From assembly GCA_012513515.1 (NCBI GenBank), contig JAAZCA010000031.1, forward strand, positions 25,995-89,994: a DNA stretch of 64,000 nucleotides, in the 5' to 3' direction. Position numbers and translations under genes: made by a program. Origin of the DNA: Myxococcales bacterium (lineage in GTDB: Bacteria; UBA10199; 2-02-FULL-44-16; JAAZCA01). Below, piece by piece: positions 30,419-57,049 of the stretch. How positions within the stretch are numbered: the first letter of the stretch is position 1; every line of letters starts with the position of its first letter. The notes below the pieces were generated by a model. It was given only the letters and a program-made list of their open reading frames with translations, was not told the DNA's origin and searched no databases.

Positions 30419-31492
30419 ATGCAAAAATTCAACAAGACCCTTCTTGAAGAGATCCTGTCGCTCCCCACAATGAGTTTCCATGAAACCGCAGTGGCGACAT
30501 TCGTAAGAATCTATTCTGCAGCGATAGGCCTTAAAGTCGATGAAGATCGCTTCGGCAATATACTTGTCAAATACAAGGGCGGTTCGGGAAGGCCGGTTAC
30601 ATTCACAGCGCACATGGACCATCCCGGATTCGAAATCGTATCCTCATCAGGAAAGAAGGGGACCGCCGCCCTGTGGGGGCGCGTCGACGTAAAGTTCTTT
30701 TCAGGATCAAGCGTAGCGATCCATACGGAGAGAGCTAAGATCAAGGGGAAGATTGGAAAGCTCATCAAATCCAAAAAATATTTTGGCAAGCCATGCTTCG
30801 AAATCTCATCGGATGAAGAATTTTCGGAAGGCGATTTCGGGCATTACGATCTCCCCGGTTTCAAACAGAAGAAAGATATCCTCCATGCCAGAGCGGCGGA
30901 CAACCTCGCCAGCGTAGCAGCGATATTGGAACTCATGACGAGGCTGGTCGCCAAAAAATCCAAGTCGAATGTCTGCGGCCTCTTTACGCGTGCGGAGGAA
31001 GCCGGCTTCATCGGCGCCTTCGGTGCCATCGAGGCCGGAACAGTTTCCGCTAAGGATCCCATAATAGTCATGGAATGCAGCTCCGCGCCCGGAGGCAAGG
31101 TCGATATCGGCGGAGGGCCTGTAATCAGGTCCGGCGATGCCCAGAGTTCCTACGACCCCGCGGTTGAGGCGTGGCTGATCGACTGTGCAGCCTCGGCAAA
31201 ATCCAGATCGAAGGGATTCAAAAGCCAACGGGCGCTTCTAAAAGGCGGCCGCTGCGAAGCATGCGTATATGTTGCGGAAGGCTTCCCTGTCGGCGGGCTG
31301 GCGCTGGCACTTGGCAACTATCACAACCACGGCCCGAAGGGATACGCTGCGGAATACATCTCGGCATGCGACTATGAAAACATGATTTTACTCATGGAAG
31401 AGGTCGCCGCATCCCCGATGCCCAAGAATATCTTCAAGAAAAAACTCGCCCCGCTATGGAAAAATTACAGGGATCTGAAAAAGAAATTATAA
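30419..31492 (+). CDS. M42 family aminopeptidase (deblocking/endoglucanase-like)
   Basis: 357 aa binuclear metallo-aminopeptidase. Metal and catalytic motifs: TFTAHMDHPGFEI (His ligand, about 64), ARAADNLASVAAI (bridging Asp, about 170), TRAEEAGFIGAFG (catalytic Glu and ligand, about 203), VMECSS, and a closing YHNHGP. The start at 30419 has AAAGG about ten bases upstream; an earlier in-frame ATG lies in repeat sequence. Its last 22 codons and downstream 50 bases are duplicated at 32830, on the far side of the Fic gene. Confidence 0.88.
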   Translation: MQKFNKTLLEEILSLPTMSFHETAVATFVRIYSAAIGLKVDEDRFGNILVKYKGGSGRPVTFTAHMDHPGFEIVSSSGKKGTAALWGRVDVKFFSGSSVAIHTERAKIKGKIGKLIKSKKYFGKPCFEISSDEEFSEGDFGHYDLPGFKQKKDILHARAADNLASVAAILELMTRLVAKKSKSNVCGLFTRAEEAGFIGAFGAIEAGTVSAKDPIIVMECSSAPGGKVDIGGGPVIRSGDAQSSYDPAVEAWLIDCAASAKSRSKGFKSQRALLKGGRCEACVYVAEGFPVGGLALALGNYHNHGPKGYAAEYISACDYENMILLMEEVAASPMPKNIFKKKLAPLWKNYRDLKKKL

Positions 31493-31565
31493 ACATTTTA
31501 AAATTATTTAATACTGCATCTTGATTCTTAATCTTCATCTTTATCTTTATCTTAATCCTGATTCT
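31428..31565. repeat. Direct repeat, left copy (M42 3' end plus TCTTAATC tract)
   Basis: Bases 31428-31541 are identical to 32830-32943 (114 bases); the match continues with a few mismatches for about 24 more. It covers the final 22 codons of the M42 gene, its stop, and a low-complexity TTGATTCTTAATCTTCATCT tract. Confidence 0.93.
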
Positions 31566-31650
31566 GATCTTAATAACGATATTTTCGAATATAAGTTAGT
31601 TTTACAAATGCTGATCAAAGATCAGCGATCAGGATTCGCCCCCTCCCGCA

Positions 31651-31676
31651 ACAACCGTGACTGGTGACTCGTATTA
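31651..31676. repeat. Unit C fragment
   Basis: GCAACAACCGTGACTGGTGACTCGT matches the C units at 25528 and 34620. It lies inside the segment bracketed by the direct repeats, upstream of fic. Confidence 0.55.
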
Positions 31677-31713
31677 AAATTTGCTCGACCATCCGGCAGT
31701 ATTGGTAAGCACA

Positions 31714-31742
31714 TTTACAATCGTCTAACTATCGTCTATAAT
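31714..31742 (+). promoter_or_regulatory. Sigma-70 promoter of fic, probably leaderless
   Basis: TTTACA, a 17-base spacer and a perfect TATAAT. Only eight bases separate the -10 box from the ATG at 31751, so transcription should begin at or next to the start codon. There is no Shine-Dalgarno. Confidence 0.75.
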
Positions 31743-31747
31743 TAGAC
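31720..31747. promoter_or_regulatory. Possible operator over the fic promoter
   Basis: Inverted GTCTAA (31723) and TTAGAC (31742), plus a direct repeat ATCGTCTA at 31720 and 31731, 11 bases apart (about one helical turn). Both cover the -10 region. The Fic product has a C-terminal winged-helix-like segment that could bind here; that is inference. Confidence 0.4.
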
Positions 31748-31750
31748 TAT

Positions 31751-32785
31751 ATGTTACAGCCCAAGTATAGCGTTTCTGATAAATTACTTAATAATATCAA
31801 GACTATAGCAGTGATATGCTCAGAGCTTAATAATCAGGCATTTGCCAAAACAATACTATCTAGTTTTGAGGCAAAGGCTAATTCCCTCTCTGCATATTCA
31901 TCCACGAGCATTGAAGGAAATCCAATCCCCCTTACGGATGTCAAAAGACTTATTAAATCAAAACCGGAAAAGATCAGAGATACCGAGCGGGAGGTGCTGA
32001 ACTATAACAGCGCCTTTGAATACCTTAAAAATGAAATTGCTGGCGGTCAAATATCCATAAGTGAAAAACTGATCTGCACTATCCAAAAGAAAATTACCGA
32101 AGGGCTGATCGAAAAGCACAGATGTGGAAAATTCAGAACTGAACCTGTTTTCGTAAACGACCCCAGAACGGGAAAGCCGGCATATCTCCCTCCCGACCAT
32201 CAAGATGTTGGCAAGCTGATGAAAGAATTATTAGATTTTGTAAAGCAAAAGCGTGGCAAGATCGATGCGCTCATTCTGGCCGGAATTTTTCACAAGGAAT
32301 TTGTGATCATTCATCCGTTTGTAGATGGTAATGGTAGAACTGCAAGACTAATCACAAAAGCACTTCTTGCAGATATGGGGTTGAACACATTCAATCTCTT
32401 CAGCTTCGAAAATTATTACAACAGAAATGTCACCAAATATTTTGTAAAGGTTGGAGCGCTTGGTAACTTTTACGATATTGGAAACGACCTTGATCTTACA
32501 GAATGGCTGGAATATTTTACCGATGGAATAATAGATGAGTTGTTGCGCGTTAAAAAGGAGCTCTCTGCCGAAACTATTTCACCTAAAACCAAACTATTTC
32601 CCCATCACAACAAGATTCTCGATTTTATAGATCGCAACGGATTCATAACGGATAGGGACTATTCAAAGCTGACCAAGCGTGCAAAGGCAACCAGAGCTTT
32701 GGATTTTAAAAAGTTGATGGAACTTGGACTTATTAAACGCTTTGGCAAAGGACGAGCGATTCATTACAAGAAAAAGACAAGATGA
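31751..32785 (+). CDS. Fic family protein (putative AMP/NMP transferase)
   Basis: 344 aa. Fic enzymes move AMP or other nucleotide groups from a nucleotide cofactor to hydroxyl side chains of target proteins. The complete active-site motif HPFVDGNGRTAR is at about residues 196-207. An N-terminal STSIEGN (about 54-60) matches the inhibitory [S/T]xxxE[G/N] helix, so it is a self-inhibited type. The C-terminal 80 residues (NKILDFIDRNGFITDRDYSKLTKRAKATRALDFKKLMELGLI) look like a winged helix-turn-helix. Base composition is more A/T-rich than its neighbours, and the gene lies between direct repeats, both signs of acquisition. Confidence 0.93.
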   Translation: MLQPKYSVSDKLLNNIKTIAVICSELNNQAFAKTILSSFEAKANSLSAYSSTSIEGNPIPLTDVKRLIKSKPEKIRDTEREVLNYNSAFEYLKNEIAGGQISISEKLICTIQKKITEGLIEKHRCGKFRTEPVFVNDPRTGKPAYLPPDHQDVGKLMKELLDFVKQKRGKIDALILAGIFHKEFVIIHPFVDGNGRTARLITKALLADMGLNTFNLFSFENYYNRNVTKYFVKVGALGNFYDIGNDLDLTEWLEYFTDGIIDELLRVKKELSAETISPKTKLFPHHNKILDFIDRNGFITDRDYSKLTKRAKATRALDFKKLMELGLIKRFGKGRAIHYKKKTR

Positions 32786-32829
32786 AGCCGGGCGTTTTTT
32801 TGCCTGTGTCGAGATTGCGTGGCCCCCAC

Positions 32830-32967
32830 ATATCTTCAAGAAAAAACTCGCCCCGCTATGGAAAAATTACAGGGATCTGAAAAAGAAATTATAAACATTT
32901 TAAAATTATTTAATACTGCATCTTGATTCTTAATCTTCATCTTCGTCTTTATCTTAATCTTGATTCT
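32830..32967. repeat. Direct repeat, right copy (truncated M42 3' end)
   Basis: Second copy of 31428-31565, identical for 114 bases. It preserves the last 22 codons (IFKKKLAPLWKNYRDL...) and stop of the M42 gene without any upstream coding sequence, so it is a remnant. The TCTTAATCTTGATTC tract continues to about 32990. Apart from a possible -10 TATAAT at 33035, the rest of 32786-33137 shows nothing else. Confidence 0.93.
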
Positions 32968-33137
32968 TAATCTTAATCTTGATTTTGTTGTACTTAAATA
33001 TGATGGTGAGATTCCTTCGTTTTTAAGCTTTGATTATAATGAGGAATGAGTTTGGTAAAAAAATGTTATAAATAGATAAAGTGTTTGCCCCGCGCCCGTG
33101 CGGCTGATATAGCGCTGCGAGACAGTCAGGAGGATTT

Positions 33138-34511
33138 ATGGTCAGAAAAGTCGTCCCATATAAGATCAAGATCGTAGAGCCGATAGCGCTGCTATCCCGC
33201 GAGGATCGCGAGGCAAAGATTTCCGAGGCAGGGCTCAACATTTTTCGCCTCAGATCTAAGCACGTCTACATAGACCTTCTCACCGATTCGGGAACCGGCG
33301 CGCTCAGTCAGGAGCAGCTTTCACAGATGATGATAGGGGATGAATCGTATGCTGGATCCGAGTCCTTCTTCAGGCTGGAGAAGGCGATCCGCGACATCAT
33401 GCATCTTCCTTACGTGATCCCGGTCCATCAGGGGCGTGCGGCAGAACAGGTTCTTGATTTCACTCTTGTAAGGGAAGGGCAGGTCGTCCCCGGCAACACG
33501 CATTTCGACACGACCAAGGCGCATATCGAATTCCGCGGAGGGCGAACTATAGATTGCACTATCGCGGAGGGGCGCGATTCGACGGTGATGTATCCGTTCA
33601 AGGGGAATATAGATATGAATCTCCTCGAGCATGCGTACAAAAAGTATGGCCGTGAAAAGATATCGTATGTTCTCATAACGGTCACGTGCAATTCCGGCGG
33701 GGGGCAGCCGGTCTCGATGGAAAATATCAGGCAGGTTTCGAGCTTCTGCGCCGAGAAAGGGCTGCGCCTCTTCTTTGACGCCGCGCGTTTCGCGGAAAAC
33801 GCCTATTTCATACAGCAGCGCGAACCGGGCTACGCCGACAAATCTATAAAGGGAATCGTGCGCGAGATGTTTTCATATGTCGAAGGATGTACGATGTCGG
33901 CGAAGAAGGACGGCCTCGTTCCGATCGGCGGTTTCCTCGCCCTGCGCGATGAGAAACTCTATGAAGAGATGAAGCCCACGGACATCCTCTTCGAGGGTTT
34001 CTACACCTACGGCGGAATGAGCGGCATGAACATGGATGCGATGGCGCAGGGGCTTTGCGAGGTCGTAGAGGAAAGTTATCTAGCGCACCGCATAGGTCAG
34101 ACATCATATCTCGGCGAAGAGCTTACTAAGAGGGACGTTCCGATAGTGAGGCCTGTCGGAGGTCACGCTGTATTTATCGATGGGAGAAGATTTTTCCCGA
34201 ACGTTCCAGAAAGCGAATTTCCCGCGCAGCTTCTCGTTGTGGAGCTATATCGCGAAGGCGGAGTGAGGGCGGTAGAGGTCGGCTCATGCCTCGCTGGTCG
34301 CGATCCCGATAGCGGAGATAACATCCGTCCAGCCCTTGATCTATGCAGACTTACGATCCCGAGGCGCGTTTACACCGAGGAGCATTTCGATTACGTAGCC
34401 GACGTCGTTGACGAGGTTTTCAAGAAACAGCGAAGCAGAAAGCGCGGCCTCGGATTCGATGTGGAGACCAAGGGAATTCGCCACTTCACGTCGACGTTTA
34501 AGGAGTTGTAA
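33138..34511 (+). CDS. tnaA: Tryptophanase (tryptophan indole-lyase)
   Basis: 457 aa PLP enzyme cleaving L-tryptophan to indole, pyruvate and ammonia. Family landmarks: IDLLTDSGTGALSQEQLSQMMIGDESYAGS, VIPVHQGRAAEQ, CNSGGGQPVSMENIRQV, FFDAARFAENAYFIQQREPGY, and the PLP Lys in CTMSAKKDGLVPIGG (about 256). Near residue 380 it reads VRAVEVG, as in tryptophanases, where tyrosine phenol-lyases have VRSMERG. AGGAGG is five bases before the ATG. No TnaC-like leader with a conserved Trp is evident and no tryptophan permease follows. Activity on tryptophan rather than another amino acid is a good inference, not proof. Confidence 0.88.
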   Translation: MVRKVVPYKIKIVEPIALLSREDREAKISEAGLNIFRLRSKHVYIDLLTDSGTGALSQEQLSQMMIGDESYAGSESFFRLEKAIRDIMHLPYVIPVHQGRAAEQVLDFTLVREGQVVPGNTHFDTTKAHIEFRGGRTIDCTIAEGRDSTVMYPFKGNIDMNLLEHAYKKYGREKISYVLITVTCNSGGGQPVSMENIRQVSSFCAEKGLRLFFDAARFAENAYFIQQREPGYADKSIKGIVREMFSYVEGCTMSAKKDGLVPIGGFLALRDEKLYEEMKPTDILFEGFYTYGGMSGMNMDAMAQGLCEVVEESYLAHRIGQTSYLGEELTKRDVPIVRPVGGHAVFIDGRRFFPNVPESEFPAQLLVVELYREGGVRAVEVGSCLAGRDPDSGDNIRPALDLCRLTIPRRVYTEEHFDYVADVVDEVFKKQRSRKRGLGFDVETKGIRHFTSTFKEL

Positions 34512-55666: not shown

Positions 55667-57049
55667 TTATAAGGACTCGAAGGTCCCCTGAAAAAAGCGC
55701 AGATCGTGCGGCTCGAACTTGAATTTCAACCCTTTGACTTCACTTCTGCGCTTCCACACCCTTTTTAGAGACTCCACCACGACATCCATATGGGAATTCG
55801 TGTAAACCCTTCGCGGGATGGTAAGGCGAACGAGCTCTAGCTTCGGCAACCTGTTCTGACCGGTGGTGTGATCCCTTCCGGCAGAGACTATTCCTCGTTC
55901 CATCGAACGAACTCCGCTTTCTATGTAGAGCTCAGCGGCGAGCCGCTGTGCCGGATACTGTTCCTGAGGTATATGCGGAAAGAAGGCCTTTGCATCGACG
56001 AAGACGGCATGACCGCCGATCGGACGGACGACAGGTATGTCGGCCTGCATACAGCTACGGCCTAGATATTCTACTTGGTTTATTCTCCAGTTTATTATTT
56101 CCTCGTTTTCAGCTGCCTCCTTGAAACCGCGTGCGACCGCTTCCATGTCACGCCCAGCCATACCGCCGTAAGTATGAAGACCTTCGAACACGACCACCAG
56201 ATTTTTTGCATCGATGAAAAATTTTTCCTCATTCATCGCAAGCCATCCACCGATATTCACGTATGCGTCCTTTTTTGCCGACATCGTGCATGCATCGGTG
56301 TAGGAGCAAAGCTCCCGGCAGATATCTTTCAGGCTCTTGTTCGAATATCCCTGTTCGCGTTTCCTGATGAAATAACAATTTTCCAAAACGCGCGCCGCAT
56401 CTAGCACAACCTTGATACCGTTCCTCCTGCAGTACTTTGAAACCTCACGCATATTGGCCATCGATACGGGCTGCCCGCCTGCCATATTGACTGGCGCACC
56501 TACCGTTATGTAGGCAACTCTGTCAGCTCCGAATTCATTTACGATCTTTTCCAGTTTCGCCAGATCTACATTCCCCTTAAACGGATTATCCGCATAGGGA
56601 TCGTGCGCATCGTCGATTATCACATCGTGGAAAGTTGCGCCGGCCATTTCCTGATGAAGGCGGGTCGTTGTGAAATACATATTTCCAGGAACGTGGTCGC
56701 CTGGCTTGATGAGACACTTTGAAAGTATGTGCTCGGCCCCTCTCCCCTGATGAGTGGGAACGATGTACTTGTATCCCATGACATCGCGAACGACCTCTTC
56801 TAAAAAATAATAATTCTTGCTGCCGGCATACGCCTCATCACCGAGCATCATACCCGCCCACTGATAGTCGCTCATGGCGGAGGTTCCGGAGTCGGTCAAG
56901 AGGTCTATCCACACATCTTCGCTCTTTAAAAGAAAGGTATTCCAGCCAGCCTCTTTCATCGCCCTTTCGCGTTCCGATCGTGTCTTGATCTTGATATGCT
57001 CCACCATTTTAATTTTATAAGGTTCCGCCATCATCATTATGTCATCCAT
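55667..57049 (-). CDS. tpl: Tyrosine phenol-lyase
   Basis: 460 aa PLP enzyme splitting L-tyrosine into phenol, pyruvate and ammonia. Distinguished from tryptophanase by SAMSDYQWAGMMLGDEAYAGS, GNMYFTTTRLHQEMAGA, and VRSMERGIVSAGR, which has the Arg (about residue 383) equivalent to the substrate-binding Arg381 of characterised enzymes. PLP Lys in CTMSAKKDAYVNIGG (about 258). C-terminal EPHDLRFFQGTF. AGGAGG is five bases before the ATG at 57049. It is the last gene of a minus-strand unit with ridA, pepT and an M29 aminopeptidase, 107 bases after ridA. Confidence 0.92.
   Translation of the reverse strand: MDDIMMMAEPYKIKMVEHIKIKTRSERERAMKEAGWNTFLLKSEDVWIDLLTDSGTSAMSDYQWAGMMLGDEAYAGSKNYYFLEEVVRDVMGYKYIVPTHQGRGAEHILSKCLIKPGDHVPGNMYFTTTRLHQEMAGATFHDVIIDDAHDPYADNPFKGNVDLAKLEKIVNEFGADRVAYITVGAPVNMAGGQPVSMANMREVSKYCRRNGIKVVLDAARVLENCYFIRKREQGYSNKSLKDICRELCSYTDACTMSAKKDAYVNIGGWLAMNEEKFFIDAKNLVVVFEGLHTYGGMAGRDMEAVARGFKEAAENEEIINWRINQVEYLGRSCMQADIPVVRPIGGHAVFVDAKAFFPHIPQEQYPAQRLAAELYIESGVRSMERGIVSAGRDHTTGQNRLPKLELVRLTIPRRVYTNSHMDVVVESLKRVWKRRSEVKGLKFKFEPHDLRFFQGTFESL

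What the first reader, a model, noticed from the sequence alone, without database searches (positions are those of the whole stretch)
31428..32967. Fic gene bracketed by a 114-bp perfect direct repeat made from a neighbour's 3' end
Bases 31428-31541 equal 32830-32943 exactly. The left copy is the genuine 3' end of the M42 peptidase gene; the right copy is a bare remnant of the last 22 codons. The 1.4 kb between them holds only fic, its promoter and a repeat fragment, and is A/T-richer than the surroundings. Integration that restores the target gene's 3' end, or unequal recombination, would give this pattern, and recombination between the copies would delete fic cleanly.
Basis: partly seen in the sequence, partly recalled or inferred. 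Interest (0 to 1): 0.62.

Follow-up and report, generated by a model that had tools for sequence, protein, structure and literature searches.

The report
Acquired fic gene between duplicated sequence
A foreign-looking Fic gene sits between two identical 114-bp copies of the end of the neighbouring peptidase gene; this looks like an ordinary recombination scar from recent gene gain rather than a new mobile element, although the repeats could let the gene be lost again.

Summary
Bases 31428-31541 equal 32830-32943 exactly, and similarity extends to 138 nt at 98%. In the 1.79-Mb genome assembly the M42 tail occurs only at these two places. The assembler's k-mer was 127, judging from exact 127-bp contig-end overlaps, so a 114-bp repeat was resolvable and a collapse artefact is unlikely. 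Between the copies lie a dispersed repeat not found in relatives, an AT-rich class-II-type fic gene with a conserved promoter, and 44 bp of unmatched DNA. The integration reading is not favoured. There is no integrase in the insert, and the genome's only two tyrosine recombinases look like XerC and XerD. The duplicated block runs past the stop codon into the lineage's own dispersed repeat, so the second copy came from this lineage's DNA. Fic orthologues elsewhere lack flanking repeats and have different neighbours. The best explanation is one-sided recombination: a homologous crossover in the M42 end or its hexamer array, plus one illegitimate joint at 32829/32830. This leaves a direct duplication, as reported for E. 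coli single-crossover insertions (109-950 bp). The locus is also variable: the next gene is inverted relative to relatives. No congener was available to show an empty site.

The parts
30419..31492 (+). M42-type peptidase gene, intact; its 3' end is the source of the repeat
   Evidence: Pfam PF05343 E 8.9e-22; colinear over all 357 aa with G002 at 66%
31428..31541 (+). Left exact repeat copy: last 65 nt of M42, 25-nt spacer, start of hexamer array (98% to 31565)
31518..31673 (+). Dispersed intergenic repeat: TCTTAATCTTGA-like array plus conserved blocks; about 20 copies at 82-92% in this genome, no long match in 59 other genomes searched
31714..31750 (+). fic promoter TTTACA-N17-TATAAT with ATCGTCTA repeats, conserved upstream of five fic orthologues; TATAAT ends 8 nt before ATG
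   Evidence: one search finds the block as DNA in G012, G039, G034
31751..32785 (+). fic: Fic protein, 344 aa, motif HPFVDGNGRTAR and N-terminal STSIEGN (class II type), GC 0.393
   Evidence: Pfam PF02661 E 6.8e-19; PADLOC SoFic model E 1.8e-46; motifs read; GC
32786..32829 (+). 44 bp of unmatched DNA after fic, ending at the illegitimate joint
   Evidence: no copy elsewhere in the genome beyond short chance matches
32830..32943 (+). Right exact repeat copy: bare M42 3' end (98% to 32967)
32920..32986 (+). Hexamer array continuing the right copy, without the rest of the dispersed repeat
32987..33137 (+). Unique upstream region of the next gene
   Evidence: single copy
33138..34511 (+). Tryptophanase/tyrosine phenol-lyase family gene, inverted relative to M42 when compared with relatives
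   Evidence: NCBIfam NF009709 E 3e-193; convergent with M42 in G002, G010, G036

Best explanation
An acquired, AT-rich fic gene was placed downstream of the M42 peptidase gene by one-sided recombination. One side was homologous, in the M42 3' end or its hexamer array. The other side was an illegitimate joint between the DNA after fic and codon 337 of M42. This left the stretch between the two points duplicated, giving 114-138-bp direct repeats around fic. The source could be a recircularised fragment that crossed over once, or a linear fragment with a single homologous anchor. No dedicated recombinase is involved. Shown: the repeat, its uniqueness, the single-copy fic, the lineage-specific sequence inside the repeat, and the absence of integrases other than XerC/XerD-like proteins. 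Inferred: the order of events, the donor and the mechanism. Recombination between the copies could later delete fic and leave M42 intact; this is also inferred.
For: The repeat includes 49 nt beyond the stop codon, reaching into a dispersed repeat family not found in relatives, so the second copy derives from this lineage. The left boundary falls at an unremarkable point inside M42 and the right boundary in a repetitive array. fic is compositionally foreign, patchy (6 of 46 genomes of the class including this one, absent from same-family genomes) and has a 64% relative beside phage terminase genes in an IMG/VR contig. In E. coli, insertions ascribed to single crossing-over of circular molecules left flanking duplications of 109-950 bp in sequenced clones (PMC3240628). 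ComEC is present. The interval between M42 and the deaminase gene is variable: inverted lyase gene here, another gene in G001.
Against: No empty site or donor sequence was found. The joint shows no clear microhomology, and the donor sequence beyond it is unknown. Ku is absent, so end joining or circularisation would need another route. The order of events cannot be fixed from one genome.
Confidence: 0.58

Rival explanations
1. Tandem duplication followed by deletion: fic already lay between M42 and the lyase gene, the segment from the M42 end through fic was duplicated in tandem, and the second fic copy was lost, perhaps through hexamer-array recombination, leaving only the repeat.
For: Gives the same final map and needs no foreign DNA at the time of duplication; hexamer arrays lie on both sides.
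Against: Needs at least one more event, and no trace of a second fic or of the dispersed-repeat blocks remains on the right.
Confidence: 0.22
2. Site-specific integration at the M42 3' end by an element that restores the gene end; the integrase and most of the element were later lost, or it acted in trans.
For: Bracketing by direct repeats with an intact left gene end is the classic att arrangement; a phage contig carries a fic relative.
Against: No integrase in the insert; only two tyrosine recombinases in a 99.3% complete genome, both resembling Xer proteins. Perfect identity runs into lineage-specific repeat DNA. fic orthologues lie in unrelated contexts without repeats.
Confidence: 0.12
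3. Assembly artefact or chimera in the metagenome assembly.
For: The genome is a fragmented 42-contig metagenome assembly and no reads could be examined.
Against: k = 127 exceeds the 114-bp repeat; the copies differ just beyond the exact block and lead into different sequence on each side.
Confidence: 0.06

Closest known systems
Single-crossover (Campbell-type) or homology-facilitated illegitimate insertion, e.g. E. coli lacZ duplications of 109-950 bp (PMC3240628)
   Same: Inserted DNA flanked by a direct duplication of part of the target, of matching size; one homologous side and one illegitimate side; no recombinase
   Different: A natural event inferred from one genome; donor unknown; the right end lies in a repetitive array
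Integrative elements that restore a gene's 3' end (att direct repeats)
   Same: Direct repeats around cargo, intact gene end on one side, bare remnant on the other
   Different: No integrase, cargo of one gene, duplicated block is host sequence including a lineage-specific dispersed repeat
SoFic-like class II Fic proteins
   Same: Fic motif HPFxxGNGR, N-terminal S/TxxxE(G/N) inhibitory motif; PADLOC SoFic model E 1.8e-46
   Different: NCBIfam SoFic model scores 52 bits against a cut-off of 550, so a distant relative, not a confirmed SoFic; defence activity untested
Repeat-flanked variable segments of bacterial genomes (PMC2884548)
   Same: Small variable segment flanked by direct repeats; many such loci are ascribed to illegitimate recombination
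   Different: The repeat here is longer than the mostly under-30-bp repeats reported there

Membership tests
Integrase-mediated element at a gene 3' end | Integrase gene in the element | tested here: not met
   Insert encodes only fic; only two Xer-like tyrosine recombinases in the genome
Integrase-mediated element at a gene 3' end | Direct att-like repeats with restored gene end | tested here: met
Integrase-mediated element at a gene 3' end | Same element at the same target in other genomes, or an empty site | tested here: inconclusive
   fic orthologues are in other contexts; no congener available
One-sided (single-crossover or homology-facilitated illegitimate) insertion | Direct duplication of resident sequence flanking the insert | tested here: met
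One-sided (single-crossover or homology-facilitated illegitimate) insertion | One joint without homology | tested here: inconclusive
   No homology upstream of the repeat start, but the donor sequence is unknown
One-sided (single-crossover or homology-facilitated illegitimate) insertion | Empty target site in a close relative | not testable with these tools
   Nearest M42 is 66% identical, in another genus
Fic family, class II | HPFx[D/E]GNGRxxR-type motif and N-terminal [S/T]xxxE[G/N] | tested here: met
   HPFVDGNGRTAR and STSIEGN, conserved in orthologues; PF02661
SoFic anti-phage defence | Score above the curated family cut-off | tested here: not met
   NF046030 52.1 bits against cut-off 550, though PADLOC SoFic E 1.8e-46
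SoFic anti-phage defence | Protection against phage in an assay | not testable with these tools
   Needs an experiment

The most novel reading that the evidence does not exclude
A recombinase-free, reversible single-gene cassette: a likely defence gene held between long identical repeats of its neighbour's 3' end, so that ordinary homologous recombination removes it in part of the population without harming the neighbour.
Probability: 0.08. Interest if true: 0.45.

Novelty: new member of a known kind. Interest (0 to 1): 0.25.

Why it matters
It is a clear and, judging from the perfect repeat, recent example of how a single accessory gene, possibly an anti-phage gene, can enter a genome without an integrase and stay bracketed by repeats that allow its precise loss. 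It also cautions against reading every direct-repeat-bracketed gene as an integrated element.

Tried and rejected
Site-specific integration: no integrase beyond Xer-like proteins, lineage-specific DNA inside the repeat. Shared cassette boundaries: orthologous fic genes in five genomes share only the gene and about 37 bp upstream, with different neighbours and no bracketing repeats. Recurrence of the pattern in this genome: a survey of direct repeats under 10 kb apart gave no other gene-end duplication around an insert among the pairs inspected. A second Fic gene on contig C6 is flanked by copies of the dispersed repeat, but that repeat is common between genes. Empty site: none found; the nearest relatives are other genera and have no comparable sequence downstream of M42. 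Known plasmids and phages carry only distant Fic relatives under 60% identity. Assembly collapse: argued against by k = 127.

Full report
Check of the observation. The repeat is as described: 31428-31541 equals 32830-32943, extending to 138 nt at 98%. The copies start 1402 bp apart with 1288 bp between them. The block is the last 65 nt of the M42 gene, 25 nt of AT-rich spacer and the beginning of a hexamer array. In the window's genome (1.79 Mb, 42 contigs, 99.3% complete) no third copy of the M42 tail exists; three further matches are 23-33-bp pieces of the array. Contigs end in exact 127-bp overlaps, so the assembler's k was most likely 127, and the longest exact repeats with both copies well inside contigs are 122, 118 and 114 bp. 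The repeat was therefore within reach of the assembler, and the copies differ just beyond the exact block. An artefact is unlikely, though reads were not available.

What lies between the copies. After the left copy comes a dispersed intergenic repeat (31518-31673), with about 20 copies at 82-92% in this genome and no long match in 59 other genomes. Then comes fic (31751-32785), a 344-residue Fic protein (PF02661) with HPFVDGNGRTAR and the N-terminal STSIEGN motif of class II Fic proteins (the class rule is established knowledge, restated in PMC12249575). Its promoter TTTACA-N17-TATAAT carries ATCGTCTA repeats and is conserved upstream of five orthologues. fic GC is 0.393, in the lowest 1.8% of ORFs of 200 aa or more. 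After 44 bp without a match elsewhere in the genome comes the right copy, whose array runs straight into the unique upstream region of the next gene.

Distribution of fic. Orthologues at 59-69% occur in five other genomes of the class, in other families, and not in the three same-family genomes. They have different neighbours and no flanking direct repeats. A 64% relative lies beside terminase genes in an IMG/VR contig. Known phages and plasmids hold only relatives under 60%. fic is therefore probably horizontally acquired (inference).

The locus. In G002, G010 and G036 the M42 gene faces the lyase gene tail to tail; in the window the orthologous lyase gene (81% to G002) is on the same strand as M42, so it was probably inverted in this lineage. 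In G001 a different gene lies between M42 and the deaminase. The interval is a variable spot.

Mechanism. A site-specific element is not favoured. There is no integrase in the insert, and the genome's two tyrosine recombinases look like XerC and XerD (that assignment rests on size and sequence inspection, not on a family model). The repeat also contains lineage-specific sequence past the stop codon, so the second copy was made from this lineage's DNA (inference). Unequal crossover between hexamer arrays alone cannot place the M42 end after fic; a joint without homology at 32829/32830 is needed. One homologous side and one illegitimate side is what single-crossover or homology-facilitated illegitimate insertion gives. 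In E. coli such events left duplications of 109-950 bp in sequenced clones, which the authors ascribed to single crossing-over of circular molecules that had lost part of the homologous fragment (PMC3240628). Short variable segments flanked by repeats occur in many bacterial genomes, and a large share of such loci is ascribed to illegitimate recombination (PMC2884548). ComEC is present and Ku absent; neither is decisive. Tandem duplication with later deletion is the main rival.

Function of fic. The PADLOC SoFic model matches at E 1.8e-46, but the curated NCBIfam SoFic model is far below its cut-off. The protein is a class II Fic of SoFic-like type; [quoted passage not shown] A defence role here is possible and untested.

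Verdict. It is ordinary in kind, with modest interest as a possible route of reversible gene loss.

Noticed in passing
31518-31673; also C3, C6, C14, C17, C29, C30, C36, C39 and other contigs of the genome: Dispersed intergenic repeat family built of TCTTAATCTTGA-like arrays and conserved blocks; some copies lie near inverted motifs resembling TAAGTAACCTCTGAAAA, which suggests a composite MITE-like element.
   Followed up: partly
31714-31750: fic promoter TTTACA-N17-TATAAT with ATCGTCTA repeats conserved in five orthologues; TATAAT ends only 8 nt before ATG, which suggests a leaderless, possibly self-repressed transcript.
   Followed up: partly
33138-34511: Lyase gene inverted relative to M42 in comparison with G002, G010 and G036.
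   Followed up: partly
55667-57049: Second tryptophanase/tyrosine phenol-lyase-like gene, about 47% identical to the relatives' orthologue of the first.
   Followed up: no
L098:4889-6028 (C6:47888-49027): Another Fic-family gene with copies of the dispersed repeat on both sides.
   Followed up: partly
L191:1-5489: IMG/VR contig with a 64% fic relative followed by a ParB/methyltransferase-like gene and small and large terminase genes.
   Followed up: partly
C34, C35, C42 of the window's genome: Three small contigs read as N throughout and could not be searched.
   Followed up: no
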